Source: a virus. From it: 42,149 nucleotides of DNA. Where the stretch lies: positions 1-42,149 of the IMG/VR virus record IMGVR_UViG_3300030102_007769. One strand, given 5' to 3'. This document shows positions 2,782-34,783 of this stretch, piece by piece (positions within the stretch are counted from its first letter, which is position 1; each line of letters begins with the position of its first letter). The notes beneath the pieces were generated by a model, which worked only from the letters and a program-made list of their open reading frames with translations, searched no databases and was not told the DNA's origin. The translations under genes and the position numbers were made by a program.

Positions 2782-3830
2782 TATGGATACATGCTAGCAG
2801 ACGCGACATCGTAGTCAACCATCTTTTTGACTAATTGGATGAAGTTCGTCTTAGGGTGCCACCCCAGCTCTTCGCGAGCTTTAGTGGAATCTCCCAACAG
2901 TAAATCAACTTCAGCTGGACGATAAAAATCTTTATTAATTTCCACAAAGCAGTCTTTGCCATGAAAATACTTTTCCTCTAATCCTTCACCCCTCCACTCA
3001 GAAACACTTCGATGAAAACCAACAAAATTAAAAGCTTCAACCACAAACTCTCTAATTGTGTGTGTTTCGTTAGAAGATAACACATAGTCTTTGGGGTTCT
3101 CCCTATCTTGATTTAGCATCAACCAAACACCCTTAACAAAATCTTCTGCATCGCTCCAATCTCTTTTAGCATCAACATTGCCGAGTTGTAGAGGCTTGAT
3201 TGTTTTGCCCTGCTCAAAGTCTTTTAATATTCTAGCGACATTTTTTGTTATCTTTCTAGTAACAAACTCTTCTCCTCTCCTAACGCCTTCATGGTTGAAA
3301 AGCCAACCTTGAACAGCATACAAATCATATGAATCCCTGTAAACTTTTACAAGATGTCTAGCAGCACACTTAGCTGCTCCATACGGGCTTCTGGGGCGCA
3401 GTGGGTGCGTTTCATCCTGCGGCGTAGATACCACATCACCAAACTCCTCAGATGAGCCAGCATTGTAATATCGGCAATGTGGAGCGTGTTTTCTAATACC
3501 CTCTAATTGATGCAAAACCGCCATAGCGTTTGTCTGCATATGGTTGACAGGCATCTTCCAACTACTGCCTACAAAAGAATTAGCGGCAAAGTTAATAAAG
3601 TAATCTGGCTTGTGTTCAGAAATGACTCTCTCTGTGTTTTGAGGATCTGAAATATCTAGGTCAATTAGAAAAAATCTTTCGTTATTTTCTAGGTGCTTAA
3701 TATTTTTATGGTTTTTAACACTCAGTCTTCTAGCGCCCCCAATAATCGTGTGCTGTGTATGCTTTAGAAGATAATCAACCATGTGACTGCCATCTTGTCC
3801 TGTCACTCCTGTGATAATTATTTTTTTCAT
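2781..3830 (-). CDS. gmd: GDP-mannose 4,6-dehydratase
   Basis: A 349-residue short-chain dehydrogenase/reductase of the GMD family. The NAD(P)-binding motif T-G-V-T-G-Q-D-G-S-H (7-16) is the GMD signature. The catalytic set is visible as S-S-E (126-128) and Y150-x-x-x-K154 in S-P-Y-G-A-A-K. The family converts GDP-mannose to GDP-4-keto-6-deoxy-mannose, the precursor of GDP-fucose, GDP-rhamnose and GDP-perosamine. No fucose synthase or reductase is next to it. The nearby aminotransferase and acetyltransferase would suit a perosamine-type end product, though host enzymes could complete other routes. Last gene of the glycan cassette before the recombination genes. Confidence 0.93.
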   Translation of the reverse strand: MKKIIITGVTGQDGSHMVDYLLKHTQHTIIGGARRLSVKNHKNIKHLENNERFFLIDLDISDPQNTERVISEHKPDYFINFAANSFVGSSWKMPVNHMQTNAMAVLHQLEGIRKHAPHCRYYNAGSSEEFGDVVSTPQDETHPLRPRSPYGAAKCAARHLVKVYRDSYDLYAVQGWLFNHEGVRRGEEFVTRKITKNVARILKDFEQGKTIKPLQLGNVDAKRDWSDAEDFVKGVWLMLNQDRENPKDYVLSSNETHTIREFVVEAFNFVGFHRSVSEWRGEGLEEKYFHGKDCFVEINKDFYRPAEVDLLLGDSTKAREELGWHPKTNFIQLVKKMVDYDVASASMYP

Positions 3831-4552
3831 TTATTTATAAATTTTATTTTTGGTTCAAACATTGCTTCAACTGAAGTTATAATACAAGGATTTTTGCAAT
3901 CTCCGAGAAATCGGAATCCGTTTCCATCATGAAATATTGTGCAAAAATCTTTTGTGTGATCAAGGACTTCTCCATATTCAAAAAATAGATTTGTCTGATA
4001 TATTTGCCCTCCTCCGTAAGCTAAATCTAGATCCTTATCAAGAAAGGGTAGTTTACCGTGATCTGATATTATCCTTTTAAGTATTTCTTTAGAAGTTCCG
4101 TATATAGATACTGAAGCGTGTTTTGGATTGTGACCGTCATGGTTTTGTGATACGGCGGTGACCATAGATGCATTATCTATAGAATAGAATTTTTCTTTGT
4201 AAATTCTATCGAAGTTATTTTGAAGAAAAATAAAGTCGTCTTCCGAAAATATAAAGAAATCAAAATCATCTATAAAAGTATCAACAGCATGAGAGTATGC
4301 CCCGTAAGAGATTCCTACATTCTCTCTTGAAAGAGTGACAAGTTTAAATTTTTCTTTAAGAGCAAAAACCTCCTGTTCATAGCCATCGGGAATATCTCCA
4401 TTAACGACAAAAGTTATCTGATCGAGGTCGTGTTTTATCTTGCATAAATACTCTACTTGTTTTTTTAAGAAAAAAAACTTATCAGTTTTCGTTTCTTGAA
4501 TCTCCTTTCTTCTTTCTCCAAAGTAGAAAGCTTTTACAAGATTTGTTTTCAT
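3827..4552 (-). CDS. Glycosyltransferase family 2-like protein
   Basis: A 241-residue protein with a GT-A-type layout: a nucleotide-binding half with R-E-N-V-G-I-S-Y-G-A (76-85), similar to the R-N-x-G-x-x-x-G element of GT2 enzymes, and an acidic triad S-E-D-D (103-106) preceding F-I-F that fits the metal-binding DxD position. No membrane segment or signal peptide, so it is probably cytoplasmic. It overlaps gmd by 4 bp (ATGA) and the aminotransferase stop by one base. Donor and acceptor are unknown. Confidence 0.65.
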   Translation of the reverse strand: MKTNLVKAFYFGERRKEIQETKTDKFFFLKKQVEYLCKIKHDLDQITFVVNGDIPDGYEQEVFALKEKFKLVTLSRENVGISYGAYSHAVDTFIDDFDFFIFSEDDFIFLQNNFDRIYKEKFYSIDNASMVTAVSQNHDGHNPKHASVSIYGTSKEILKRIISDHGKLPFLDKDLDLAYGGGQIYQTNLFFEYGEVLDHTKDFCTIFHDGNGFRFLGDCKNPCIITSVEAMFEPKIKFINK

Positions 4553-5637
4553 TAAAAAATATTTAGAATTCTTGCTATTTGCGCTACTTCATCTTCTTCT
4601 ACCCACCACCCTACAGGAATGTTTAGTAATTTGGAATCAAACTCATTTAAGTTTTTAAGGCTTTCATCTTTACCTCCAAAAACAGAATACTCGTCGTTTC
4701 TAACATGCACTCTATCAGAGGCTATTCCGTGGTCAGCAAGATAAGATTTTAAATTTTCTCTATCTTCTGTTAAAATAGAATAAATCCAACTGGAGCTTAC
4801 GGTGTGATCGGGCTTTCTCATTTTTGTAATCTTAGGATTAGTAATATGCTCATCATAGTATGCTCTATTTCTCATGTGGCATCCTATGATCTCATCAATA
4901 TAGCTCATGTTTCTTAAGCCTATTGCAGCATTGATATTATTCATATGATACTTATATCCTGACTCTGTAATATCTTGGTCCCACCTGCTTTCTCCTTTAT
5001 ATTTTCTATCTAGCCCAAACCATCTTATTTTTCTCGCTCTTTCTGAATCTTCTTGGCTTTTACATGCAATCGCACCTCCGTCTCCACAAGTTAGGTGTTT
5101 TATAGCTTGAAATGAAAAACACACAAAGTCTGAATGAGATCCTATCCTTTTACCTTTGTATGATGAGCCAAAAGCATGAGCCGCATCTTCAATAACTTTT
5201 ATATTAAATTCTTTTGCTATATCATTAATTTTATCAATCTCTACTGGTTGTCCAGCCCAGTGAACAGCTACGATTGCTTTTGTTTTATCTGTTATCTTAG
5301 ACCTGATACTTTCGGGGCAAATATTACCTGTCGTAATATCAATATCTGCGAAAATAAGCTTGGCCCCCATATTGTAAAACGGCTCATTAGTAGCCATGCA
5401 GGTCATTGCTGTAGTTATTACCTCGTCCCCCTTTTCTATTCCAGACAAGATACCAGCCAAATGTAAGGCAGAAGTCCCACTATTTGTTAGAGATGTATTT
5501 TTATTACCAATATATTGAGATACTTTATCCTCAAAATCGTCTGAATATTCGCCTTCTGTGAGACATCCTTTTTCAAAAATATTAGAAAGCACCGAAGAAC
5601 AGTCTTCCGACATAAATGGTTTAAATAATGAAATCAT
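4552..5637 (-). CDS. DegT/DnrJ/EryC1/StrS-family sugar aminotransferase
   Basis: A 361-residue PLP-dependent aminotransferase. Family motifs: S-G-T-S-A-L-H-L (53-60), V-I-E-D-A-A-H-A-F-G (148-157; the Asp contacts the PLP ring nitrogen), and F-Q-A-I-K-H-L-T-C-G-D-G-G, where K180 would form the Schiff base. These enzymes aminate keto-sugars attached to nucleotides, typically using glutamate. The ATG at 5637 is preferred over an in-frame TTG at 5658, which would run 16 bases into the preceding gene and add an atypical N-terminus. Flanking 4,6-dehydratases supply 4-keto-6-deoxy sugar substrates and a GNAT protein could acetylate the product. Confidence 0.9.
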   Translation of the reverse strand: MISLFKPFMSEDCSSVLSNIFEKGCLTEGEYSDDFEDKVSQYIGNKNTSLTNSGTSALHLAGILSGIEKGDEVITTAMTCMATNEPFYNMGAKLIFADIDITTGNICPESIRSKITDKTKAIVAVHWAGQPVEIDKINDIAKEFNIKVIEDAAHAFGSSYKGKRIGSHSDFVCFSFQAIKHLTCGDGGAIACKSQEDSERARKIRWFGLDRKYKGESRWDQDITESGYKYHMNNINAAIGLRNMSYIDEIIGCHMRNRAYYDEHITNPKITKMRKPDHTVSSSWIYSILTEDRENLKSYLADHGIASDRVHVRNDEYSVFGGKDESLKNLNEFDSKLLNIPVGWWVEEDEVAQIARILNIF

Positions 5638-5642
5638 AAAAT

Positions 5643-6656
5643 TTATTCTTCTAACCAATGCTTGTTTTGTAGAGTCCAGTCAACTGTTTTTTGTAAGGTT
5701 TCATTAAAGTAAACTGGAACCTTCCATCCTAAATCTTCTAGTTTATCTCCATTAAGTGCATATCTTAAATCATGAGCGGGTCTTTTTGAGTGATAGTCAG
5801 TCATCTCATATATAGCTTTTTCTCCCATTATTTCGGAAATTCTTTGAACAACTTCTAGATTCGATAATTCTTCGCATCCTGATATATTGTATCTTCCTAT
5901 GGATGAATCATGACTATTTAAGATTTCATCTGTGTTTTTTAATACAAAAATAAAAGCATCGGCAACATTTCTGGCATGAATGTAAAATCTGCTTCCAGCT
6001 TTTTTGCCATCTGGATAGCAGTGAATATGTATTTTTTCTTTATTTAAAATTGATTTAATAACTTTTGGTATAAATTTTTCAGCGTGTTGCCTTTCTCCTA
6101 TAATGTTCATTGTGTTTGTAATGACAATAGGGATACCATATGTGTTGCAATATGATTCGCAAATGCTCTCGCTCGCAGCTTTTGAGGCTGAATAAGGGTT
6201 ACCACAATTAAATCTGTCTCCCTCTTTATAAGCAAATCCTTCTGGCGCGTTGCCGAAAACTTCGTCTGTAGAAAAATACATAAACTTTTCTAAGTTATCG
6301 CAATGCAATCTGGCGAATTCTAACAAATTTAAAGTAGAATCTACATTATTTTTGGTAAAGTTTTTTGGATTTGAAATAGAATTTTCTACATGTGACTCAG
6401 CGGCAATGTGTAAAATGTAATTTGTATCTTTTAATTCTTTTACTAAGCCATAAGGTATTTTTGAACACAAATCAAAAGTCAACATTTTTAATCTAGGATT
6501 ACTTAAAGCCGCAGTTTCTCTGAGTCTAGATAATCCAAAAGAAGCATAGCTTAACTTATCAATACAATAAATGTCCCAGTTGGTTTTTTTTAAGATATGG
6601 TCGATAACGTGGTGTCCTACAAACCCGCATCCTCCTGTTACAATGACTTTTTTCAT
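5643..6656 (-). CDS. rfbB: dTDP-glucose 4,6-dehydratase-like NAD-dependent sugar dehydratase
   Basis: A 337-residue extended SDR enzyme. Motifs: T-G-G-C-G-F-V-G-H-H (7-16), A-A-E-S-H-V (85-90), F-S-T-D-E-V-F-G (128-135) with the D-E pair used in dehydration, and N-P-Y-S-A-S-K (Y155/K159). This combination is typical of RmlB/RfbB, which converts dTDP-glucose to dTDP-4-keto-6-deoxyglucose. UDP- or CDP-sugar dehydratases share most of these residues, so the nucleotide is less certain than the reaction type. It overlaps the acetyltransferase stop by 4 bp. No rmlA, rmlC or rmlD genes are visible. Confidence 0.85.
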   Translation of the reverse strand: MKKVIVTGGCGFVGHHVIDHILKKTNWDIYCIDKLSYASFGLSRLRETAALSNPRLKMLTFDLCSKIPYGLVKELKDTNYILHIAAESHVENSISNPKNFTKNNVDSTLNLLEFARLHCDNLEKFMYFSTDEVFGNAPEGFAYKEGDRFNCGNPYSASKAASESICESYCNTYGIPIVITNTMNIIGERQHAEKFIPKVIKSILNKEKIHIHCYPDGKKAGSRFYIHARNVADAFIFVLKNTDEILNSHDSSIGRYNISGCEELSNLEVVQRISEIMGEKAIYEMTDYHSKRPAHDLRYALNGDKLEDLGWKVPVYFNETLQKTVDWTLQNKHWLEE

Positions 6657-14220: not shown

Positions 14221-14817
14221 TTGATTGAAGACCTAACAGATTCAGCTCTGACAGAAATGATCAGGCAGGAAAGAAATGAAAAAGCGCTAAATGAGCTTAT
14301 TTCTAGGCATTCTGGCATATACATTGATATGCTTAAGAGATATGGAATAAATTGTCTTACTGAGAATCAAGTCTTTGATATTATGAAAGAAAAAGACTAT
14401 ACGATTTATAGAGCTGCTTTAGAGTATGACGAGAGAAAAGCTAAATTTTCTACTCATTTAGCAAATAAGACAAAATATCTCTGTCTTACGCAGAAGACAA
14501 AAAATAAAAAGAATCGAGTTGTTTCTAACTTTGATGAAATTAATTTTTGTCAAAAAGACAAATCCTCTACTCCTGATGAATCCTGCACAATGAACGACTC
14601 ATTTTCAAGAATACTGAATTTGATAAATAAGCATAAAGACAAGAGATTGAAAATAATTTTTCACGAAAGATATTTTTGTGGAGAAAGAGGCAAACTAAAA
14701 CCTTGGAAGGATGTGGCTAAAAAGATAAATCTTTCCGCACAGGGATGCATAAATATTCATGATAAAGCTGTGAGAGAACTTAATCAGAAAATTGATAATG
14801 AGAAAATTAAATTTTGA
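14221..14817 (+). CDS. RNA polymerase sigma-factor-like protein
   Basis: A 198-residue protein with two sigma-70-like parts. The N-terminal region has L-T-D-S-A-L-T-E-M-I (5-14), I-S-R-H-S-G-I-Y (27-34) and K-A-K-F-S-T-H-L (73-80), which resembles region 2 (F-x-T-Y/H-L). The C-terminal region has P-W-K-D-V-A-K-K-I-N-L-S (161-172), then a recognition-type helix, as in region 4. It would direct host polymerase to phage promoters. The TTG at 14221 is chosen because the conserved-looking N-terminus starts there and a stop lies three codons upstream; no Shine-Dalgarno is visible. An ATG at codon 12 would cut into the domain. Divergence is high, so a sigma-like DNA-binding protein without sigma activity remains possible. 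Confidence 0.65.
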   Translation: MIEDLTDSALTEMIRQERNEKALNELISRHSGIYIDMLKRYGINCLTENQVFDIMKEKDYTIYRAALEYDERKAKFSTHLANKTKYLCLTQKTKNKKNRVVSNFDEINFCQKDKSSTPDESCTMNDSFSRILNLINKHKDKRLKIIFHERYFCGERGKLKPWKDVAKKINLSAQGCINIHDKAVRELNQKIDNEKIKF

Positions 14818-15886
14818 AGGCCCAATAAATTCACTGAGCTTGGGAAATGTTACAGTAAACTTCTTAAGAGAGCTTGAAAAAAGAGATTTAGATATATCGC
14901 TTTATCCTATTGGGGATCAAGGAGATTTCACAGCGTATGATAAAATATCTGATGATTTTAAGTCGTGGGTTTCAAATATAGCAACGTCTAGATTGAAAAA
15001 CCTATGTTCAGAAAACCCATCGCTTAAGATCTGGCATATAAATGGATCAGAAAAACTCCTACCAAATCAATATTTATACACTTTCCATGAGGTTGACTCT
15101 CCTACAGAAGAAGAAGTAAATATTGTTAATATTCAAAAACATGTATTCTTTTCCTCGTCTGAGGCTGCGGAAAATTTCAAGAATAAAGGATGTGAGAATG
15201 TCTCTTACATACCATTGGGATTTGATCCAGATTTTCATGTAACAGAAAAGAAGCACCTTGAAGACACAATTCACTTTGGGTTAGTAGGAAAATTTGAAAG
15301 AAGAAAAAACACTCAAGCTATCATTCAGCTTTGGGCAGATAAATTTGGTAACAATCCTAAATATCAATTATCTTGCTTGGTTTCTAATCCGTTTCTTAAT
15401 CAAGAGCAGATGAATCAAGCAATACAATCATCACTCAGGGGTCAGAATTGGTCTAATATTAACTTTCTACCTCATTTGAAAACTAATTCCGAAATGAACG
15501 ACTTTATCAACTCTATTGATATTGATCTATCGGGGATTTCTAATGGAGAGGGATGGAATTTACCTTCATTTAATGCTACAGCACTAGGAAAATGGTCTAT
15601 AGTTAGTAACTGCACCGCACATAAAGATTGGGCTACAAAAGAAAATTCAATTTTAATTGAACCTGTAGGCAAACAACAATGTTACGACAACTATTTTTTC
15701 AAAGAGGGCCTTCCATTTAATCAGGGACAATATTACAAATTAAAAGGAGATGATATTATAAAGTCATTTGATGAAGCTGTATCCCGTGTGGGTCAACTTA
15801 ACACAGAAGGGACAAAACTTCGTGACAGTTTTACATATTCAAATACTATTGATGAGATTCTTTCACACATGTATAGCGATTCTTGA
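14798..15886 (+). CDS. Glycosyltransferase family 4-like
   Basis: A 362-residue GT-B protein from the ATG at 14798; a TTG two codons earlier is unlikely. It overlaps the sigma-like gene by 20 bp. The C-terminal domain begins G-L-V-G-K-F-E-R-R-K-N (161-171), typical of GT4. The signature region reads N-G-E-G-W-N-L-P-S-F-N, so the EX7E motif is EX7N: E251 is kept and the second Glu is N259. This form may still bind donor or may be less active. It is separated from the main glycan cassette by the RNR genes and lies on the other strand. Confidence 0.75.
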   Translation: MRKLNFEGPINSLSLGNVTVNFLRELEKRDLDISLYPIGDQGDFTAYDKISDDFKSWVSNIATSRLKNLCSENPSLKIWHINGSEKLLPNQYLYTFHEVDSPTEEEVNIVNIQKHVFFSSSEAAENFKNKGCENVSYIPLGFDPDFHVTEKKHLEDTIHFGLVGKFERRKNTQAIIQLWADKFGNNPKYQLSCLVSNPFLNQEQMNQAIQSSLRGQNWSNINFLPHLKTNSEMNDFINSIDIDLSGISNGEGWNLPSFNATALGKWSIVSNCTAHKDWATKENSILIEPVGKQQCYDNYFFKEGLPFNQGQYYKLKGDDIIKSFDEAVSRVGQLNTEGTKLRDSFTYSNTIDEILSHMYSDS

Positions 15887-15914
15887 TTGGTATAGAAATT
15901 GATAATAGATTATT

Positions 15915-16238
15915 ATGTATTATAAACTTAATAAAAAATTCATGGACTACTTTGATCAATTTGAAACTACTAAACACGCTAAAGTTAAAGATAGCGGTGA
16001 TGTTTACGTTGGTGAATTTGAACTAGCTGGCTTCTCAAAAGATGATATTGAAATTTTAGCTACTGATGAAGAACTAAAAATTCATGCAAAGAATAAAGAA
16101 AGAGAAAAAAGATTTAATTTAACATTATATAGCGCTGTATCTATCTCTGATATCTCCTCCGAGACAAAAGATGGATTACTTACAGTTACCATGCCTAAAA
16201 AATGTGTTAGTGAGCGAATAAAAATTAAAGTAAAATAA
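15915..16238 (+). CDS. Small heat shock protein, Hsp20/alpha-crystallin family
   Basis: A 107-residue protein with a compact alpha-crystallin domain: G-E-F-E-L-A-G-F-S-K-D-D-I (33-45), E-L-K-I-H-A (53-58), and the family signature K-D-G-L-L-T-V-T-M-P-K (85-95). The C-terminal extension holds an I-x-I motif (I102-K-I104) that links dimers into oligomers. The N-terminal arm is very short. Hsp20 proteins hold unfolding proteins without ATP, and are frequent in aquatic phages, where roles in capsid assembly or host-protein protection are suggested but not settled. Its stop shares bases with the next start (TAATG). Confidence 0.9.
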   Translation: MYYKLNKKFMDYFDQFETTKHAKVKDSGDVYVGEFELAGFSKDDIEILATDEELKIHAKNKEREKRFNLTLYSAVSISDISSETKDGLLTVTMPKKCVSERIKIKVK

Positions 16239-16618
16239 TGCCAATTTACGTCTACAAACACCCAACTGAGGAGAGATATGAGGAAATCATTCAGACTATG
16301 AGTGAACCTCATGTCTTCTCCAAAGACGGGGTAGAGTGGAAAAGAGTATTTTTACCAACTCGTTGTTCAATATCAGCAAATGCTGACCCATTTAATTCAA
16401 ACTCTTTTGTAGAAAAAACCGCAAATATGAAAGGCACGTTTGGAGATATGATGGATTATTCAAAAGAACTTAGCGAAAAGAGGGCTGAGAAAGCTGGGGG
16501 AGAAGATCCTATTAAGAGACAACACTTCAATAGGTATGAAAAAGAAGTTGGCAAAAAACACATTGCCGATAAGAAAACTTCTTACGAGAATAAATCAATC
16601 AAAATTGATTTTGATTGA
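16238..16618 (+). CDS. FmdB-like protein lacking the zinc-ribbon cysteines
   Basis: A 126-residue protein. The first 40 residues, M-P-I-Y-V-Y-K-H-P-T-E-E-R-Y-E and later Q-T-M-S-E-P, follow the FmdB/CxxC regulatory-protein layout (M-P-I-Y-E-Y plus a Met-Ser-Pro turn). Both CxxC knuckles are replaced (H-P-T-E-E and S-K-D-G-V), leaving one isolated Cys near residue 43. The rest is lysine/glutamate-rich and probably helical. A zinc-free derivative is likely. Function unknown; co-transcribed with hsp20. Confidence 0.6.
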   Translation: MPIYVYKHPTEERYEEIIQTMSEPHVFSKDGVEWKRVFLPTRCSISANADPFNSNSFVEKTANMKGTFGDMMDYSKELSEKRAEKAGGEDPIKRQHFNRYEKEVGKKHIADKKTSYENKSIKIDFD

Positions 16619-16620
16619 TT
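16593..16620. repeat. 12-bp AT-rich palindrome across two convergent stop codons
   Basis: AATCAATCAAAA (16593-16604) and TTTTGATTGATT (16609-16620) are perfect inverted repeats around TTGA. The TGA of the plus-strand gene lies in the right arm, and the TAA of the minus-strand gene begins in its last two bases. It may act as a weak bidirectional terminator, but it has little G/C. Confidence 0.6.
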
Positions 16621-17395
16621 ATGATGGAGTGGTTCCTATTCCAATATAACCCCATAGGTTAGTCCCAGTTTGAACCACTAAATTTGATCCAGAAATAGCT
16701 AAAGCACCAGTAGCTGTATTCGGTGCTGTTTGAGTTTCGGGATTTAGCCCTGTCCATGTTGGCAGTTCAAAACCAGTTTGAAATGTAACCAATTTACGAA
16801 ATACACTTGTTCCTATAACATCTAAATTTCCACTAAAGATTCCTGATTGAGAAAATGAAGCATGACTATCGAAGTAGTTGTCTCCACCTTCAAAATAATG
16901 ACCCTCACTAAATTTTGCATAAAATCTATTTGGATCAGCAACAGTTAAGCTTGATGCAGTCTGATCTTTTAATGCAACAGAGCCTGTTGCTTCTTTGTTA
17001 AATGTTATCAGATTGCCAGCTATAGCGGTATTTCTTTCACTTCCTGTTCTGAAATTTATTGAATCACCATTTATAGCTACATTTTGTATACCACTTATGG
17101 TGCTTGTGTTAACGGCTAGTGCTATATTGTTAAATCCAATAATTTGACTGTTATGACCTGCTAGTAAAACACATCCACTATCAGTGTTGAAGCTATTATC
17201 TCCTGTGCTAGCTGTAGCAAAAACTTGTTTGCCCCTATTTTTTAAAATACCAGAGAAATTAAAATTACCTGTCAAATTTCTAGATAAAACAAAACTAACT
17301 CCTGTAGAGGTAGATTGTCCTATGTGAAAGTCTCCAGAAGGCCCAAAAAAAGTTGGCATCTGGATCTGTTCAGGTTGAATTTTGTTAAATGGCAT
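16619..17395 (-). CDS. Probable tail fibre or beta-solenoid structural protein
   Basis: A 258-residue protein rich in Gly, Asn, Ser and Thr. The N-terminus (F-N-K-I-Q-P-E-Q-I-Q-M-P-T-F) resembles the start of phage fibre proteins that attach to a baseplate. The middle has short periodic strands such as N-N-I-A-L-A-V-N and N-V-A-I-N-G-D, suggesting a beta-solenoid or trimeric fibre. The C-terminal third is G/T-rich (T-G-A-L-A-I-S-G-S). It is the only minus-strand gene within the 14221-21574 plus-strand block and abuts its convergent neighbour without a gap. The structural call is compositional. Confidence 0.6.
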   Translation of the reverse strand: MPFNKIQPEQIQMPTFFGPSGDFHIGQSTSTGVSFVLSRNLTGNFNFSGILKNRGKQVFATASTGDNSFNTDSGCVLLAGHNSQIIGFNNIALAVNTSTISGIQNVAINGDSINFRTGSERNTAIAGNLITFNKEATGSVALKDQTASSLTVADPNRFYAKFSEGHYFEGGDNYFDSHASFSQSGIFSGNLDVIGTSVFRKLVTFQTGFELPTWTGLNPETQTAPNTATGALAISGSNLVVQTGTNLWGYIGIGTTPS

Positions 17396-17433
17396 AATAC
17401 AATAGATTATCTTTTATAAATTACACGAATTCA
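17396..17433. promoter_or_regulatory. 38-bp divergent gap between fibre and SSB-like genes
   Basis: AT-rich gap separating two outward-facing ATGs. It contains one GTGTAA copy on the minus strand (17421-17426), about 30 bases before the fibre ATG. Promoters for both genes may overlap here. Confidence 0.4.
17421..17426 (-). promoter_or_regulatory. GTGTAA motif upstream of the fibre gene
   Basis: TTACAC on the plus strand, starting 26 bases before the minus-strand ATG at 17395, followed by TTTATAA on the coding strand. Exact copy of the recurrent motif. Confidence 0.3.
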
Positions 17434-17994
17434 ATGAAATTTACTCTTTATAAGCCAAACTCTAAAAATACAGGGGCTGCTTTCAGTTTTGATCTAGCTA
17501 AGGACAAGAAGGGGAATGCAGTTATGTATGTCTCTATGATTCAGCAACACAGCTGGAACGATAAGACAAAAAGTGGCTCTTTTAAGGAAAATGCTAAGAA
17601 TCCTGAAAAATCTGGCACAATCAAACTATCAGTAAATGAGGCTGGAGAAGTCCTTTCTTCATTTAAGACCAGAATACCTTTCGTAGCCTTTCATAGAAGG
17701 AATGATGATACAACCATAATTAAATTTACTCCTTGGGATAAGAAAAGAAAGATTATGGGGAAAGATGGAGATACTTGGCACGAAACCCCTGCATTTGGAG
17801 TCAGTGTTACACGAAATTCGTCCATGACTTTCAAGCTTCCCTTAGAGGCTGGAGAAACGGAGGTCTTATCAGAGTTACTAAAAAAATATATTTTAGAATC
17901 CTTTATTGTGGCAGACGCATATAAACCTCAAGCTCCCAAAGAAGAAACTCAAGAAGATACCTTAGATACTGAAGACTCAGATGTCCCCTTCTAA
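17434..17994 (+). CDS. Single-stranded DNA-binding-like protein with SSB-type C-terminal tip
   Basis: A 186-residue protein. The body (1-150) is strand-rich with alternating charged and aromatic residues (M-Y-V-S-M-I-Q-Q-H-S, T-I-I-K-F-T-P-W-D, F-G-V-S-V-T-R). The last 25 residues are acidic and disordered and end D-S-D-V-P-F, closely resembling the bacterial SSB tip (D-D-D-I-P-F) that recruits repair and replication proteins. An OB-fold could not be confirmed by eye; a whirly-type fold is another option. It would coat ssDNA for the phage RecA and helicase. Its end overlaps the next gene by 14 bp. Confidence 0.65.
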   Translation: MKFTLYKPNSKNTGAAFSFDLAKDKKGNAVMYVSMIQQHSWNDKTKSGSFKENAKNPEKSGTIKLSVNEAGEVLSSFKTRIPFVAFHRRNDDTTIIKFTPWDKKRKIMGKDGDTWHETPAFGVSVTRNSSMTFKLPLEAGETEVLSELLKKYILESFIVADAYKPQAPKEETQEDTLDTEDSDVPF

Positions 17995-19690
17995 AAAACT
18001 AAGAGTGTTAGTTCACTCAAATCATAGCAGATTAGTAACTGGATTTGGCAAAAATGCTAAAAACATATTACTAGCTCTTCATGAAGATCCAGACATAGAA
18101 GTTATTGAAGCTGGAAATGGAGCTAAATCTGGAGCAGATCTACTTACTCCTTGGGAATCTTATGGGACTCACCCTTCAAATCCCAACATACTTCAACAGA
18201 TACAGGGAGATGGGCCAAAAGAAAGAATGGCTCAATATGGTTTTTACACCATAGATGAAATAGTTGAAAAATGTAAGCCTGACGTTTACTTAGGAATTGA
18301 AGATATTTGGGCGTTTTCAGAATATGAGAAGAAACCTTGGTGGAATAATATAAATAAAGTAATATGGACTACTTTGGATAGCTTGCCAATCTTAGATCAA
18401 GCAATACACATGGAGCCTCTTTGTGATAAGATGCTAGTCTGGGCCTCTTTCGCAGAAGAAGACATGAAAAGGCTTGGGCACAAAAATGTAGAAACCATAC
18501 ATGGAGCTGTTGACTATACAAATTTTTATCCTCTTGAAAATAGAAATGACATAAGAAAGAAATTTGGAATAGATGACTGTTTTGTAATAGGATTTGTATT
18601 TAAAAATCAGCTCAGAAAATCTGTTCCAAACTTATTGCAGGGGTTTAAAATATTCAAAGAGCAAAACCCAGACGTAAAAGCAAAGCTACTCCTGCACACT
18701 GATTGGGGTGAAGTGGGACAAGGGTGGGATATCCCTAGATATATCAATGAAATGGGCATTGATCCTAAAGATGTATTATCTACTTACGTTTGCCATAATT
18801 GTGATTTCTACTTTGTTTCTCACTATCAGGGAGAAGACAAAAATTGTCCTAGATGCAAAGCTGAGAAAACATTCAAAACAAAAAACAGTAACAAGGGCAT
18901 TGGTGAGATTGAGCTAAATGAGCTTTATAATTGCATGGATGTTTACTGTCATCCTTTTACAAGTGGAGGACAAGAGCTTCCAATCCAAGAAGCCAAATCT
19001 GTTGGACTTATAACACTAGTTACAGAATACTCCTGCGGGACAGACTGTTGCTATGAACATCAAGGAGGCATACCTTTAAAGTGGAATGAATACAGGGAGC
19101 CTCACACACAATTTATAAAAGCCTCTACTTGTCCTGAAGACATAGCTGATAAATTAAAACTTGTTTATGAAATGGACGATATAGAAAGACTTTCTTTATC
19201 TGCTAAATCAATCAAGTATGTGAAAGAAAACTACTCGGTTAAAAAAATAACTGATAAATTAAAAAAATGTCTTCTCGGTCTAGGCGAACCCAAAAAACAA
19301 AAAACCGAAGAAAAGCCAGATCAAAATATCGTAGATATAAACGATGTCCTCGATGATGAAGGTGCTGAGAACAGAATAGCCGTAGTGATGCCAGAGTCTG
19401 CTGGAGACATTCTTATATTGAATTCTTTAATGAATAATTTAAAAACACTTTATCCTGATAAAAATATTTATGTTTTCACAAAGCCTGAATTTTATCAAAT
19501 GATTGATGACAATCCAAGCGTTCATAAACTACTGCCGTATCAACCATCTTTAGAAAATCTTTTATTTTTAGAAGGAAGGGGCAATCATAAAGGATACTTT
19601 GATATGGCGTTCCTTCCAAATATTGGAACACAGAGGCATTTAAATTATCTTCACAATGGAAAAGATAAAACTCAATTTGAACTAAGATGA
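17981..19690 (+). CDS. GT4 glycosyltransferase with zinc ribbon, fused to the N-terminal half of a GT9 enzyme
   Basis: A 569-residue protein. Residues 1-430 form a GT4-like GT-B enzyme with a donor-site region at S-G-G-Q-E-L-P-I-Q-E-A-K (328-339). A zinc ribbon is inserted between its strands: C271-x-x-C274 and C289-x-x-C292. After an acidic linker (about 440-462), residues 463-569 (R-I-A-V-V-M-P-E-S-A-G-D-I-L-I-L-N-S-L) match the start of GT9 heptosyltransferase-like proteins, and the coding frame then stops. The remaining GT9 half is in the next gene, linked by ATGA. A two-domain transferase could add two successive sugars. Acceptor unknown. Confidence 0.75.
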   Translation: MSPSKKLRVLVHSNHSRLVTGFGKNAKNILLALHEDPDIEVIEAGNGAKSGADLLTPWESYGTHPSNPNILQQIQGDGPKERMAQYGFYTIDEIVEKCKPDVYLGIEDIWAFSEYEKKPWWNNINKVIWTTLDSLPILDQAIHMEPLCDKMLVWASFAEEDMKRLGHKNVETIHGAVDYTNFYPLENRNDIRKKFGIDDCFVIGFVFKNQLRKSVPNLLQGFKIFKEQNPDVKAKLLLHTDWGEVGQGWDIPRYINEMGIDPKDVLSTYVCHNCDFYFVSHYQGEDKNCPRCKAEKTFKTKNSNKGIGEIELNELYNCMDVYCHPFTSGGQELPIQEAKSVGLITLVTEYSCGTDCCYEHQGGIPLKWNEYREPHTQFIKASTCPEDIADKLKLVYEMDDIERLSLSAKSIKYVKENYSVKKITDKLKKCLLGLGEPKKQKTEEKPDQNIVDINDVLDDEGAENRIAVVMPESAGDILILNSLMNNLKTLYPDKNIYVFTKPEFYQMIDDNPSVHKLLPYQPSLENLLFLEGRGNHKGYFDMAFLPNIGTQRHLNYLHNGKDKTQFELR

Positions 19691-20811
19691 GCCACCTAGC
19701 AGAAGAATACGCCAAATCTTGTGGGGTCAAGATTGGTAAGCCAGTTTTAAATCCTCATTATTTCCCAGTTATGCATGACCAATACATAACTATTCATAAT
19801 GATAAAAAAGTTCAGTCGAAAGAATACGATATGTGGTCAGATGTTATCGAAATACTTAGACCACATTTAGGAGGGATCAAGATAATCCAAATAGGCGCTC
19901 ATGGTGAAGACAGAATAGAAGGTGTTGACGATCATTTATCTACCAACACACTAAAGCAATGTTCTTACATAATAAAAAATAGTCTTGGTCATGTTGGTAT
20001 TGATAGTGTTCCTATACATATAGCATCTGCATTAGACAAACCCGTTGTTGGAATATACGCGCACACTTACGCTAGCACATGCTCTCCACTTTGGAACGAT
20101 AAATCAAAAGCAATCACGATAGAGTCCGACAGAAACGGAAACAAACCTTCTTTTTCTCTACAAGAAAACCCCAAAACAATTAATTTTATTAAACCTGAGC
20201 AAATAGCTCAAGCTGTGCTTGATGTATTGGGCATTAATAAAACAATAACGCATAAAACATTACATATTGGAGACCTATATTCTTCTAATTTTGTTGAATT
20301 AATACCCAGCGAACTTTCAAATGTAACGGCAAATAACATTGATGTTAGAATGGATTACTGCCATAATGAAAAAGTTTTAACACATGTCTTACAAACCAAT
20401 AACGTCGAGGTGACCACCTCAAAGCCCATAGATTTAAATCTTGTTCGATCTGGCAAAATAAAAAAGATAATTTACAAAAGCGACTCTTTCGATATGGATT
20501 TCTGTAAAGGCGTGAAGGAGTCTGGAATTCCTCATGTTTTAATCTGTATGTCTTCAGAGAATCTTTCTAAGGAAAGATCTAAAAACTTTGACTATTTGAT
20601 AAACTATTTAAATCTACAAGACTTAATAAAACAAAATAAAAATAAAGTTAAGGTAAAAGACTTTGATAATATTAAGATAAAAAGCGGTAAAAAAGTAGTT
20701 TGTGGAAATAAAATCTATGACAGCTACTTTGACCTGACAGGTAGGAAAAATTCAGATCACTTTTTTATTGACCTTGAGTTCTTTAGAGTTTACTCTGATT
20801 CGGATGAGTAA
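19687..20811 (+). CDS. C-terminal half of a split GT9 glycosyltransferase with extra domain
   Basis: A 374-residue protein. Residues 1-185 continue the GT9 fold broken off in the previous gene: S-Y-I-I-K-N-S-L-G-H-V-G-I-D-S (93-107) and H-I-A-S-A-L-D-K-P-V-V-G-I-Y (111-124) correspond to the donor-binding G-x-D-S/T-G-x-x-H-x-A element of heptosyltransferases. Residues 190-374 form an unassigned alpha/beta domain. The ATG overlaps the upstream TGA (ATGA), in the -1 frame relative to the first half. The two products presumably assemble, unless a frameshift has inactivated the enzyme. Confidence 0.7.
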   Translation: MSHLAEEYAKSCGVKIGKPVLNPHYFPVMHDQYITIHNDKKVQSKEYDMWSDVIEILRPHLGGIKIIQIGAHGEDRIEGVDDHLSTNTLKQCSYIIKNSLGHVGIDSVPIHIASALDKPVVGIYAHTYASTCSPLWNDKSKAITIESDRNGNKPSFSLQENPKTINFIKPEQIAQAVLDVLGINKTITHKTLHIGDLYSSNFVELIPSELSNVTANNIDVRMDYCHNEKVLTHVLQTNNVEVTTSKPIDLNLVRSGKIKKIIYKSDSFDMDFCKGVKESGIPHVLICMSSENLSKERSKNFDYLINYLNLQDLIKQNKNKVKVKDFDNIKIKSGKKVVCGNKIYDSYFDLTGRKNSDHFFIDLEFFRVYSDSDE

Positions 20812-29626: not shown

Positions 29627-32600
29627 TTATTCTACATCTTCTTCAGTTGCTCCTGTTGCAGTATCTTCTACATCTCCTTGCTCTCCAGAAATTCTCTCTA
29701 CCTTTTTCCTTAACTTAACTTGCTCTCTAGCTAATTGCTTCATCGTCCTTACAGAGTTTGCTGTAAATTTAGCTGTTTGTTTTAGCATGTCTCCCATCCC
29801 CTGTGCTGTAGGCAGTAAGTCGCTTATGGCATCTTCAATTTTTCCTATATTAGCATTACCAGCCTCAATCGCTTCTTTTTGTTGCAGTAATTCTTCTGCT
29901 ATAGCAGCTGTTTCTTCATCATTTGCAAATTGAAGAAATCTCTCAGTTGCTTTTCCCATTGCTTCATTTAAAGCTCTTTGTGTCGCTGTAAGATTGTCCA
30001 TCTCTTCCCCAGTTGCGCCTATACCTAAAGCTTTGTTAGATGCATTTTTAAATCTGCTATCAAAAACGGCATCATCGCCTCCTCCTCCAAACCGCCCTTG
30101 TGTCGATACGGCTTTCATAATCCTCTCAAGCATTGCTGGATCTATCTCTCCTAAGCCTTCAGATGAAAGTAATTTTTCAATAGTTACGCCAGTTCCCTCT
30201 AAGCTTGTCATTGTCTCTTCCAAGACTCTGCCTATTCTCTCAAGAGCTTCGGGGTCATCTTTGCCCAAGGTAAGAGGATCAAGACCCTTTATTAAACTGC
30301 TTAATTGATCGCGTTGAGATTTCACAACATCTAAATTAGTTTTAGTATTAGGACCGCCACCAAAAGCAGTTTTAATTGCATTAGCAGAAGCAGAAATAGA
30401 CGAAGATAACATATCAGCGATTTTAGTTTCTGTATCTAATCTAAGTTTTGATATTTCTCTTTCTGTTTTAAGTAAATTAAATCCAAATTTTCTAGCAGCA
30501 TCGTTGAAAGCTCCTTGAGCTTCTGTCTGTTTAGTTCTGGCTTGTTTAATCATATCAAAACCTTCGCTAAATCCAATCTTTCCTAGTGGGTTATCTCTAG
30601 CCACATTGGCAATAACTGAACCAACATTTGTCCTAGCTCTCTGAAGAGCACTTTGTGCTGTCGCCAAACCTACTTTATCTGTTTCAAAAGACGCAGTATT
30701 TTGCATTACTGTTTTGTTTGGCCCTTCAGCAAATGCATCAACTAAGCGTTGAAATGATGTTGTTTCTGATAATGCTGTTTTTAAAGCAACATCTTGTTCA
30801 GCAAATTTTTGTGCAACATCAGCTCTTACTGAAGATAACTTTTCTATAGATTGAACCTCTTCCGCTTGAGCAGCGCTCAATCTGTTTTCAAAATCCCTTT
30901 GTTTTTGAAGGTTAGTAAATCTATGACCAGCTTGCTGTGCTGTTATGTTCGCTAGCTTTTTTTGTTCATCTGTTAAGTTCTTTGTTACTTCGGCAAGTTC
31001 TGCCTCTGCTTTAGCTATTTGGCGTCGTTGTCGCTCCACAGCTCTGATGTTCCCTGAGTTTCTTGCGGTGGAGACCTTAAACAGTTTTAGCTCTTTTTCT
31101 TTTTGACTTTGCATCAGACGCTCAATCTCATCAATAGACTTGCTACTCTGTTTTGCTAATGTGCCAGCTTTGCCACCACCCATTTGATTAGCTTCCAGAT
31201 TTTTAGTTAAAAACCCTAAATCTCCACTTGTAGCTCCACTTGATTGAAGAATTACATCTTTAATTTCACTACTACTCAATTTTTTAGCCTCTTTGCCCCC
31301 AAAAAGACCTCCTACCCCTTCTCCCGCCATTCCTCCACCTAATCCTCCTAATACACCACCTATTATTGCTCCAACAACAGGTATTGGAATAAAAGCTTGT
31401 CCTAGCGCTGCGCCAGCAATAGCACCACCAGCACCACCTACTGCTCCACCTACACCCTTAGACTTTTCTCTCTTAGATAAACTATCATTTGTTAAAGTAT
31501 TAAATATATCAAATCCAGCTAAACCCACCGCAAGAGCACCTGACCCTCTTACAAGTTTAGCCCCTTTAGCAGATTTACTAAACGCCTCTTTACGTGCTGC
31601 TCCAGTCTTCCCTTTTGCTGCTCTAATTGTATTTCGCCCTTTTCCAGCAAAAAAGTCTTGAGTCTTCTTCCCTACCCTAGTAGCACCAAGCCCTCTTCCA
31701 ATTGACCCACTACTAACCATATTGACAGTTGCAATAGTAGCTAAAGCTATAGCTGCTGCGTTAGCCGCACTAGCTAATCTTTGTAATCGTGATGGTTGCT
31801 CTTTTAAGTTATTTATTAGAGTTTGTTGTTCTCTTATAAGAATTGATTTTGTTAATGCATCTTCATCACCAGCCTTAATGCTTTCTATAGTCTTTTGTAT
31901 CTCCTCTTCTTTTTTAGCAATAAGCTTATCGCTTATAGCAGTTACTTGACCCAACGCAATTTGAACCCCACCTACTATAAAGCTGAAACCCATCATGCTG
32001 TCTGATACTCTATCAAAAGTGCCAGCTAATTCCGTTCCTGAAGTATTTACAGAACTAGTTTTACTTGATGAAGTAGAACTAGCTTTACTTGATGGCGTTC
32101 TTCCAAAAGCTCCAGTCCCTCTAGCAAACTTAGGTATGAACCCTCCAGCTTTTTTAGGTATTCCTGATTTTACCTTTCTTCTATCCTCTCTACTTTGACC
32201 TTGGTTAATCAGCTTTTTAGCCATACTACCAACAGTTCCAGTTCTCATTTTTTGTCCTTTTTCATGGAACATAGAACTTCCAGTAGCATCATGCTTATAA
32301 TCTAAAAATACTTTATTAGGATTCTTGCCTAGCCCAAATAATTCTCTTATGGCCTTTATGGCAAATGCACTAACATTACTTCCTTTCTTTCCACCCTTGA
32401 TATCAAAATCTCCTCCTTCTTTTGATTGAGCAGGGCTAATCTCCAAACCTTGATTAACAGCAGCTTCAAATGCTGCACCAATAACACCCCTCAAAGCCCC
32501 TTTTCCTCCACCTTGTTTTTTTAGTATGGATTCTATCTTCTTAGGTTCAGGATTACCTAAAGCTGGATCTAACAAAGCAGCAAACTTCGCCGCATTTTTT

Positions 32601-34783
32601 GTGACAGATTCTGTTATATTCTTTTTTAACTGTTCGTCTTTAGGGTCAGCGGCTTGATCAACTGCTTTGGGGACTTGAGGGCCTTTTATTGGGAAACCAT
32701 TTTCAATTTCATATTTAATTGTTTTATTCCCTTGTCTAAAAGATCCAGTTACTCCCTTGTTAACCATGCTACTCATGCCAATATTAGGAACAAGCATTGC
32801 TGCTTTAGTCCCATCAATCATATTGATTGTTTCCATCGGTGTTGGCTTGGCAGCAGCTTTTTCTCTATCATCTTTTAACTGCCCCCTTTTTATACCAGCT
32901 GCAATTGCATTGGCATTAAAGCCTTCACGTTGAGCTTCTGCGGCACTTGTGATGTTTGTATTTTTTAGCTTTGTTGTCGCTGCCAAACTCAACCTACCCG
33001 TAGGGTATCTAGGAATTGATCCCGAAGCATACATGGGTATAACAGCAGAGTTCCCTCCTGCAAAATTTGGTATTTCTACCTCTTGGTCATTCATAATGAA
33101 CCTTCGTCCATTTATTCTACCCTGACCAAAATGAGCATTTACATTAGATGTTGCTCCAAGCATTTGTGCTGTAGCTTCTTCCTCTTGAAACCCTGTGGCA
33201 AAACCTCTTCCCCTTCTTCCTGAGAATAAGCCAGTATTTGAACTAAATCCTGTAACACCTCTAGCAGCAGCTGCTGTCGATATTTGTCGCATTAGAGCTG
33301 CTTGGCTTTTAAGTAGCGCGTTCTCTCTTCTAATAGCATCTATCACAGCTTGCTCTCTTTGAGCCTGTGTTAGCGTGGTATTTTCAATGGCTTTTCTAAG
33401 ATTTGAATCTCTTTGTAAAAGTCCAACTATACCGCCTTCAATTTGTTTTATTCTCTCTGCGGCTGTCCCCATTTGGAATAAAGATTTTATTCCATCGACT
33501 GCAAACTTAGCTATGAGCTTTGCTATTTTAGCAAATGCAGCAGTGAATATAACAATAGCTGGTCCAGATAAGAACGCAGATATTGATTTAAAAAATCCTT
33601 TGATAAAAGTGCTACCCTTTTCTGGGTCTAAAGCTTTATCAAGAAATTCTGTAAACTTTGTCGCAAGACTAACAATGTTTTCTAACAATGGAGCAAATGT
33701 TACTGTTCCTATTTTTTGTGCTAGACTTGTTACTCCTTGAACTAATCTATTGATTTGATCTGCCAAAGATTCACTAAGGGCCTTATTTTTTTCAAATGCT
33801 TCATTTGTAGCTTGTGAGGCGGTCTTCGCCGCACTAGCAAATATAGATGTATCACTTCCTATATCTTTTAAAGCAGCACTCACCACGTTGATTTGGAATA
33901 CACCACCAGCTAATTCTTTTATCTTTGCCGCTACAGTGGGATCACTAATATTTTCCAGTGCTGTAGATAAAGCTTGTAATTTCTGAACACCACTTTGAGT
34001 CGCATCTATTGCAACACCCAAATCTTGAAGCTGATTAATGGTTGTTCCTCTTTGAAGTCTTGTAAAAATTGATTTAAATGCGTTACCGATAACCGCTCCA
34101 CCCCTAGCCGTTCTTTGCTCCACTGCTGTCACAAGACCCAAAAGCTGATCAAAACTAACTCCAGCATCCTCTGCCGTTGAACCTGCTCGACTAAAAGCTT
34201 CTGCCAAATCTTGAGCTGATACAGCAAAAGCGGTATCAACAGCGACCATCTTATTGACAATCTCAGTGTGCTTCAATCCAGCAGACTGGAATCCGTTAAT
34301 AGCTGCTGTTAAGGCTTTCACAGACTTCTCTGCATCTAGCCCAGATATCCTAGTCAACACTAATGCTGATTTTAATCTTGATGCTGTCTCCTCTGCACTT
34401 AAACCCTGACGAGCCAACTCTGCTGCGCCCTCTGCTACAGTATTGAAAGACTGACCAGTTTCTTTAGCTACTTGAAAAATTGAATTTCTAAATTTATTAA
34501 AATTCGACGCGGTAGCTTGAAATATAGAGTTAATCTCTATTAACCTCTTTTCTACTTCTATAGTGGTTGAGAGCAATGCCTTGAATGACTGGCTTACACC
34601 ATTTAAAACAGCTGTAGTAGCTCCGAAAGCAAACACACGCGCAGTAGAAGCGTCTAGTGATTTTTGGAACTCTGAAGCTTGTCCTGTGATCCTACCTAGA
34701 GCCTGTTGAATCTGCTTTGTAGAAGCATTTAGACTCTGCGGATTTAGAGATACATTTAGGGAAGCATTTAAACTAGTAGGCAT
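29627..34783 (-). CDS. Tail tape measure protein with embedded nuclease-like domain
   Basis: A 1718-residue protein that sets tail length and is released during DNA entry; about 0.15 nm per residue predicts a tail near 250 nm. The N-terminal domain (about 45-320) matches TP901-type tape measures: F-A-F-G-A-T-T-A-V-L, A-A-E-L-A-R-Q-G, A-F-S-R-A-G-S-T-A-E-D-A-G. Hydrophobic segments lie near 405-430, and glycine-zipper segments at about 1110-1165, probably membrane-inserting. Residues 773-830 carry a PD-(D/E)XK-like set (E773, D792/D794, D828-Y-K830), and motifs IPNFAGG, IPMYASG, IPRYPTG and IPKFARG lie at 571, 582, 590 and 883. The C-terminus is long coiled coil. The gene starts 20 bp after the chaperone gene, behind a GTGTAA motif. 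Confidence 0.93.
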   Translation of the reverse strand: MPTSLNASLNVSLNPQSLNASTKQIQQALGRITGQASEFQKSLDASTARVFAFGATTAVLNGVSQSFKALLSTTIEVEKRLIEINSIFQATASNFNKFRNSIFQVAKETGQSFNTVAEGAAELARQGLSAEETASRLKSALVLTRISGLDAEKSVKALTAAINGFQSAGLKHTEIVNKMVAVDTAFAVSAQDLAEAFSRAGSTAEDAGVSFDQLLGLVTAVEQRTARGGAVIGNAFKSIFTRLQRGTTINQLQDLGVAIDATQSGVQKLQALSTALENISDPTVAAKIKELAGGVFQINVVSAALKDIGSDTSIFASAAKTASQATNEAFEKNKALSESLADQINRLVQGVTSLAQKIGTVTFAPLLENIVSLATKFTEFLDKALDPEKGSTFIKGFFKSISAFLSGPAIVIFTAAFAKIAKLIAKFAVDGIKSLFQMGTAAERIKQIEGGIVGLLQRDSNLRKAIENTTLTQAQREQAVIDAIRRENALLKSQAALMRQISTAAAARGVTGFSSNTGLFSGRRGRGFATGFQEEEATAQMLGATSNVNAHFGQGRINGRRFIMNDQEVEIPNFAGGNSAVIPMYASGSIPRYPTGRLSLAATTKLKNTNITSAAEAQREGFNANAIAAGIKRGQLKDDREKAAAKPTPMETINMIDGTKAAMLVPNIGMSSMVNKGVTGSFRQGNKTIKYEIENGFPIKGPQVPKAVDQAADPKDEQLKKNITESVTKNAAKFAALLDPALGNPEPKKIESILKKQGGGKGALRGVIGAAFEAAVNQGLEISPAQSKEGGDFDIKGGKKGSNVSAFAIKAIRELFGLGKNPNKVFLDYKHDATGSSMFHEKGQKMRTGTVGSMAKKLINQGQSREDRRKVKSGIPKKAGGFIPKFARGTGAFGRTPSSKASSTSSSKTSSVNTSGTELAGTFDRVSDSMMGFSFIVGGVQIALGQVTAISDKLIAKKEEEIQKTIESIKAGDEDALTKSILIREQQTLINNLKEQPSRLQRLASAANAAAIALATIATVNMVSSGSIGRGLGATRVGKKTQDFFAGKGRNTIRAAKGKTGAARKEAFSKSAKGAKLVRGSGALAVGLAGFDIFNTLTNDSLSKREKSKGVGGAVGGAGGAIAGAALGQAFIPIPVVGAIIGGVLGGLGGGMAGEGVGGLFGGKEAKKLSSSEIKDVILQSSGATSGDLGFLTKNLEANQMGGGKAGTLAKQSSKSIDEIERLMQSQKEKELKLFKVSTARNSGNIRAVERQRRQIAKAEAELAEVTKNLTDEQKKLANITAQQAGHRFTNLQKQRDFENRLSAAQAEEVQSIEKLSSVRADVAQKFAEQDVALKTALSETTSFQRLVDAFAEGPNKTVMQNTASFETDKVGLATAQSALQRARTNVGSVIANVARDNPLGKIGFSEGFDMIKQARTKQTEAQGAFNDAARKFGFNLLKTEREISKLRLDTETKIADMLSSSISASANAIKTAFGGGPNTKTNLDVVKSQRDQLSSLIKGLDPLTLGKDDPEALERIGRVLEETMTSLEGTGVTIEKLLSSEGLGEIDPAMLERIMKAVSTQGRFGGGGDDAVFDSRFKNASNKALGIGATGEEMDNLTATQRALNEAMGKATERFLQFANDEETAAIAEELLQQKEAIEAGNANIGKIEDAISDLLPTAQGMGDMLKQTAKFTANSVRTMKQLAREQVKLRKKVERISGEQGDVEDTATGATEEDVE

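What the first reader, a model, noticed from the sequence alone, without database searches (positions are those of the whole stretch)
32117..33073. Nuclease-like domain inside the tape measure protein, bracketed by IPx[FY]xxG motifs
Seen: E773, G-G-D-F-D-I (791-795) and L-D-Y-K-H-D (827-832) follow the order of a PD-(D/E)XK nuclease core. Four copies of IPx[FY]xxG lie around it: IPNFAGG 571, IPMYASG 582, IPRYPTG 590 and IPKFARG 883. Inference: a nuclease or toxin-like cargo domain set into the tape measure and possibly freed by cleavage at the repeated motif, to be delivered into the host with the DNA. A purely structural insert is the alternative.
Basis: partly seen in the sequence, partly recalled or inferred. 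Interest (0 to 1): 0.75.

Follow-up and report, generated by a model that had tools for sequence, protein, structure and literature searches.

The report
Swappable cargo domains in phage tape-measure
The tail-length ruler protein of this uncultured phage carries an inserted domain whose only fixed residues are those of a DNA-cutting enzyme, and it belongs to a large, apparently undescribed set of phage ruler proteins in which many different enzyme-like domains are swapped in and out between copies of one short protein motif.

Summary
The tape measure protein (TMP; 1718 aa, 29627-34783, minus strand) has four IPx[FY]xxG copies (0.0135 expected by chance) and an E773/D794/D828xK830 signature between the last two. 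I found 217 TMPs (or pieces) in uncultured viral contigs with two or more copies of the family motif A[AS]xG[FY][IV]PN[FY]A. Every one that was not cut at its 5' end has a TMP N-terminus. In 36 whole virus records the motif lies only in that gene.

Between motifs sit about 90 kinds of domain plus one dominant kind, the window's (148 of 217). In 146 non-redundant copies D794, D/E828 and K830 are invariant and E773 is E or D. Relatives gain, lose or replace whole domains exactly at the motifs.

Two confident AlphaFold models match no solved structure, so the PD-(D/E)XK fold is not confirmed. Cleavage at the motif is untested; the motif's restriction to TMPs and the lack of a recognised S78 protease argue against a general virion maturase. 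Best reading: motif-punctuated, interchangeable effector cargo in a TMP, probably injected with the DNA, a new variant of 'polyvalent' injected proteins. I found no mention of the motif in open papers and no cargo homologue in 50,697 phage records.

The parts
29627..34783 (-). tape measure protein gene, 1718 aa
   Evidence: PHROG tape measure 8.9e-41, PhageMin_Tail 1.7e-25
33905..34474 (-). PhageMin_Tail domain, residues 104-293
33053..33073 (-). IPNFAGG, residues 571-577: upstream linker element, not a cassette boundary
33020..33040 (-). IPMYASG, residues 582-588: upstream linker, 'SAVIPxY' conserved in close relatives
32996..33016 (-). IPRYPTG, residues 590-596: N-terminal cassette-boundary motif (aligns with RGFVPNY of L002/L004)
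32153..32821 (-). nuclease-like cargo domain, residues 655-877 (E773, D794, D828, K830)
   Evidence: A3 profile match 32123-32806, E 5.7e-34; invariance; AF2 pLDDT 81.5
32465..32467 (-). E773 codon
   Evidence: 141 E + 5 D of 146 homologues
32402..32404 (-). D794 codon
   Evidence: 146 of 146
32300..32302 (-). D828 codon
   Evidence: D 99, E 47 of 146
32294..32296 (-). K830 codon
   Evidence: 146 of 146
32117..32152 (-). KAGGFIPKFARG, residues 878-889: C-terminal cassette-boundary motif
   Evidence: motif directly follows the domain in 158 of 167 homologues
31295..31372 (-). glycine-zipper / hydrophobic segment C-terminal to the cargo (about residues 1138-1163)

Best explanation
The window's TMP is a one-cassette member of a large group of uncultured-phage TMPs that carry interchangeable effector-like domains in a fixed slot: after the conserved TMP N-terminal region and before the C-terminal part, which often has a glycine zipper. 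Cassettes are separated by a short conserved protein motif (consensus A[AS]xG[FY][IV]PN[FY]A). The window's cassette is the commonest kind, a domain with the active-site signature of a metal-dependent PD-(D/E)XK-type nuclease. Shown: the motif, its restriction to TMPs, cassette modularity at motif boundaries, and invariance of the catalytic signature. Inferred: the cassette travels down the tail with the rest of the TMP, enters the host ahead of or with the DNA, refolds, and acts on nucleic acid early in infection (host, competitor or defence-related; the target is unknown). The motif is read at protein level as the junction mark. I think docking to a tail or chaperone partner and specific proteolytic release are about equally likely.
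For: 299 motif copies in 105 ORFs against 0.65 in shuffles. Among ORFs with two or more copies, 153 have a TMP N-terminal match, 64 are cut at the contig's 5' edge, and none is complete without it. In 36 of 39 whole virus records all hits cluster in one gene on one strand; the reversed-pattern control has none. The nuclease-like domain is in 148 of 217 motif TMPs, and in whole records its matches lie in long TMP-sized frames. Catalytic columns are invariant in 43 sequences and nearly so in 146. There are 30 cassette-indel pairings and 164 replacement pairings bounded by motifs (overlapping pairs of TMPs); L006 and L020 share cassettes that are over 90% identical but differ by one replaced cassette and one 281-aa insertion starting exactly at the motif. 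216 other segments of at least 110 aa fall in 90 clusters, with Pfam hits to GNAT 7.3e-8, SNase 1.9e-9 and ART-PolyVal 1.3e-5. A glycine zipper lies after the last motif in 74 of 157 TMPs and before it in 1. Synonymous codon identity between motif copies is only slightly above expectation, 58% against 52%, so selection is mainly on the protein.
Against: No PDB or BFVD fold match to the domain, and no Pfam, PHROGs or NCBIfam family. No isolate carries homologous cargo, so nothing has been tested in a virion. Injection, refolding and target are inferred. A folded domain of about 25 kDa would not fit in a tail tube (general knowledge), so it must be unfolded or rearranged in the virion.
Confidence: 0.66

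Rival explanations
1. One reading: the motif is a protease site, and the nuclease cassette is cut free of the TMP before or during delivery.
For: Motifs stand at cassette boundaries; motif in a low-confidence flexible tail; sharp conservation over about 10 residues; polyvalent proteins are thought to be processed by built-in zincins (PMC5512222), and some cassettes here have HExxH-like stretches by eye.
Against: The motif occurs in no other gene of whole records, unlike sites of a general maturation protease. Peptidase_S78 found in 0 of 30 records (the S77 search was uninformative because its control did not ring). No protease was linked to the motif.
Confidence: 0.33
2. The motif is a docking or spacer peptide (binding the tail tube, tail chaperone or TMP partners) that holds non-TMP domains extended in the tube; the cargo stays part of the TMP.
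For: Restricted to TMPs; conserved mainly as protein, not DNA; aromatic-[IV]-Pro-Asn-aromatic core; more copies where there are more cassettes.
Against: No partner identified; nothing tested.
Confidence: 0.37
3. The insert is structural and not an enzyme.
For: No recognised enzyme fold in PDB searches.
Against: Invariant columns at about 20% identity are exactly the catalytic set; the cassette slot is variable and filled by enzyme families in relatives.
Confidence: 0.08
4. The motif is mainly a recombination hotspot, kept because its DNA lets cassettes be exchanged.
For: Exchange breakpoints sit at motifs.
Against: Codon identity between copies hardly above codon-usage expectation; copies persist in one-cassette TMPs such as the window.
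Confidence: 0.07

Closest known systems
Polyvalent proteins (Iyer et al. 2017, PMC5512222)
   Same: Many disparate effector domains (ART, GNAT, kinase, nuclease and others) in one injected phage polypeptide; domain shuffling; proposed processing. One cassette here matches Pfam ART-PolyVal.
   Different: That paper's text has no 'tape measure'. Here the carrier is the TMP itself, cassettes sit in one slot and are punctuated by one short motif.
TMPs with built-in enzymes (e.g. TM4 peptidoglycan hydrolase motif, PMC1796659; lytic transglycosylase domain in P1 Sit, PMC9024508)
   Same: Enzymatic domain inside a tape measure.
   Different: Those act on the cell wall and are single; here dozens of unrelated kinds in a swappable array.
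TMP-related contractile injection system effectors Sle1 (PMC13277306) and Tme (PMC11126660)
   Same: Tape-measure-related carrier with exchangeable functional domain, delivered by a tail-like machine (Sle1).
   Different: Bacterial contractile injection systems, Sle1's functional domain at the C-terminus; not virus TMPs, no motif-separated arrays described.
PD-(D/E)XK nuclease superfamily
   Same: E ... D ... (D/E)xK signature, essentially invariant.
   Different: A predicted helix lies between the D strand and the (D/E)xK strand; no fold match found.

Membership tests
Tail tape measure protein | homology to known TMP profiles | tested here: met
   PHROG tape measure 8.9e-41; PhageMin_Tail 1.7e-25
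Tail tape measure protein | length sets tail length | not testable with these tools
   needs virions
PD-(D/E)XK nuclease superfamily | E, D, (D/E)xK catalytic signature conserved in homologues | tested here: met
PD-(D/E)XK nuclease superfamily | restriction-endonuclease-like core fold | tested here: inconclusive
   AF2 models pLDDT 81.5 and 87.2; no Foldseek or VIA match; predicted order helix(E)-strand(D)-helix-strand(DxK)-helix differs from the canonical order
PD-(D/E)XK nuclease superfamily | metal-dependent nuclease activity | not testable with these tools
   bench assay needed
Polyvalent proteins | two or more domains of disparate biochemical activity in one phage polypeptide | tested here: met
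   met for the group; the window's own TMP has one cargo domain only
Polyvalent proteins | injected into host with DNA | not testable with these tools
   inferred from TMP biology
Polyvalent proteins | zincin-like metallopeptidase domain (common, not universal) | tested here: inconclusive
   HExxH-like stretches by eye in a few cassettes; no Pfam peptidase hit among cassette representatives

The most novel reading that the evidence does not exclude
These TMPs are polyproteins: a tail-borne delivery array in which GFIPNFA-type motifs are dedicated release sites, so one phage tail injects several separate, freely exchangeable effectors, most often a nuclease of a new family (possibly of a new fold).
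Probability: 0.3. Interest if true: 0.88.

Novelty: new variant of a known kind. Interest (0 to 1): 0.74.

Why it matters
It points to a natural modular cargo platform in phage tails, with a readable punctuation mark that makes cargo domains findable. It offers about 90 candidate families of early-infection effectors, most without a database match, and a widespread nuclease-like family. It also makes testable the open question of whether and how tape measure proteins carry working enzymes into the host cell.

Tried and rejected
Single-sequence searches with the insert in IMG/VR, phage records and PDB gave nothing; the way in was the full TMP and then DNA patterns for the motif. The profile search of A2 against PDB gave iron hydrogenases at E 0.003, judged chance (weak score, unrelated function, aligned region mostly before the catalytic columns). 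Foldseek and VIA on two models listed only unrelated chains; no restriction-endonuclease entry was listed, which is not proof of absence. The cassettes' Pfam hits below curated cut-offs (AAA_30, ParB_N, DUF6998) are leads only. hhalign between the nuclease family and other cassettes gave one clear relative (L140, 98%) and one moderate (L211, 85%); canonical-looking E-D-ExK cassettes were not significant. The five isolate TMPs checked (PMBT3, PokyPuppy, LC76P1, SPbeta YomI, Slash) have no [IV]P[NKR][FY] (PokyPuppy only partly covered). GTDB genomes gave one MAG contig with the extended motif. The paper library has no paper with 'GFIPNF', nor one with both 'IPNFA' and 'phage', but it holds open-licence papers only.

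Full report
Observation. The ORF at 29627-34783 (minus) encodes a 1718-aa tape measure protein. Shuffled TMPs of the same composition have 0.0135 such motifs on average. The window is an IMG/VR virus record of 42,149 bases with a tail module, ribonucleotide reductase, glycosyltransferases and nucleotide-sugar epimerases.

Relatives. The insert alone found nothing in IMG/VR, phage records, Pfam or PDB. The whole TMP found four close relatives. L004 and its twin L005 are complete and carry a homologous insert that keeps E, D and DxK, bracketed by RGFVPNY, ARGFIPNF and AGGFVPNY. This gave the true motif.

The motif. In 105 ORFs from the first scan there are 299 copies, 0.65 expected in shuffles; the consensus is A[AS]xG[FY][IV]PN[FY]A, with conservation falling off sharply on both sides. 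The pattern search fixed part of that consensus, so the conservation of the core is partly by selection; multiplicity and protein context are not. Of the unique ORFs from all scans with two or more copies, 153 match a TMP N-terminal profile, 64 are cut at the contig's 5' edge and none is complete without it. In whole records (39 searched, 36 with hits) hits always cluster in one gene-sized stretch on one strand, and the reversed control pattern has none.

The cargo. Between motifs lie 569 segments. The window's domain family is in 148 of 217 motif TMPs. In 39 whole records, 30 have a match at E below 1e-10, and all listed matches lie in very long single frames of TMP size. Another 216 segments of at least 110 aa form 90 single-link clusters. 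Pfam finds GNAT, staphylococcal nuclease, DUF7178 and ART-PolyVal among representatives; kinase-like, HAD-like, zincin-like and other E-D-ExK stretches are seen by eye or by simple pattern only. Cassettes move as units: 30 indel and 164 replacement pairings with conserved flanks (pairings overlap). L006 and L020 share cassettes that are over 90% identical, but one cassette is replaced and a 281-aa cassette is inserted starting exactly at a motif. Codon identity between motif copies of a gene is 58% against 52% expected, so the motif is kept mainly as protein.

The nuclease-like domain. The fully invariant columns of 43 sequences at 15-40% identity to the window are G769, E773, D794 and K830, with 828 always D or E. 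In 146 sequences culled at 85% identity, G769, D794, D/E828 and K830 stay 100%, and E773 is E in 141 and D in 5. This is the PD-(D/E)XK signature, and a structural role would not explain it. Two AF2 models are confident (window, pLDDT 81.5, pTM 0.77; family member L021, about 41% identical, with 113 sequences, 87.2, 0.80). Yet Foldseek and VIA-align found no solved relative, and the predicted order has a helix between the D strand and the DxK strand. The fold therefore remains open. The motif itself is in the low-confidence tail of both models (blocks at pLDDT 51-58).

How it most likely works. TMPs fill the tail tube and leave it at infection (established for several phages; discussed in PMC13277306). 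The cargo slot lies before a glycine-zipper, membrane-like segment (window about 1138-1163; found after the last motif in 74 of 157 TMPs and before it in 1). The simplest reading is that cargo is delivered with the TMP and acts early in the cell. What the motif does is not shown. Release by proteolysis is possible, but the motif is absent from other genes and Peptidase_S78 was found in 0 of 30 records (the S77 search was uninformative). Docking to a tail or chaperone partner fits equally well.

Known or new. The concept is closest to polyvalent proteins (PMC5512222), whose paper never mentions tape measures, to TMPs with wall-degrading domains (PMC1796659, PMC9024508) and to TMP-related CIS effectors with exchangeable domains (PMC13277306). 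A motif-separated, interchangeable cargo array within viral TMPs was not found in the literature searched, and cargo homologues are absent from 50,697 phage records at the sensitivity used.

Noticed in passing
last inter-motif segment of 126 TMPs, e.g. L008, L021, L004 (residues 860-916): A small conserved domain of about 70 aa (roughly PNFxxPLxxAIxREMxAGxxxSQI...NPxGLxVxNxxDEPxGxxQGIxR) closes many cargo arrays; it is missing from the window's TMP. Function unknown.
   Followed up: partly
window residues 560-577 (33053-33106); 44 of 121 TMPs upstream of the first motif: An upstream element Exx[VI]PN[FY]AGG resembles the GEAGxEAIIPL stretch of some ordinary TMPs (e.g. Slash); the cargo motif may derive from it.
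   Followed up: partly
L028/L043 between motifs: A cassette of about 800 residues looks like a GHKL-type ATPase by eye (ESLQNAVAHG...SDVGTGMSPEDVF).
   Followed up: no
L126, CAIKLP010000047.1: The only GTDB hit for the extended motif is a 3.5-kb contig of a Lake Erken MAG, with several cassettes including ART-like ones by eye; probably a phage contig binned with a bacterium.
   Followed up: partly
window 2784-6656 and 14792-20808: Nucleotide-sugar epimerases and several glycosyltransferases are carried by the phage, suggesting glycan or DNA modification.
   Followed up: no
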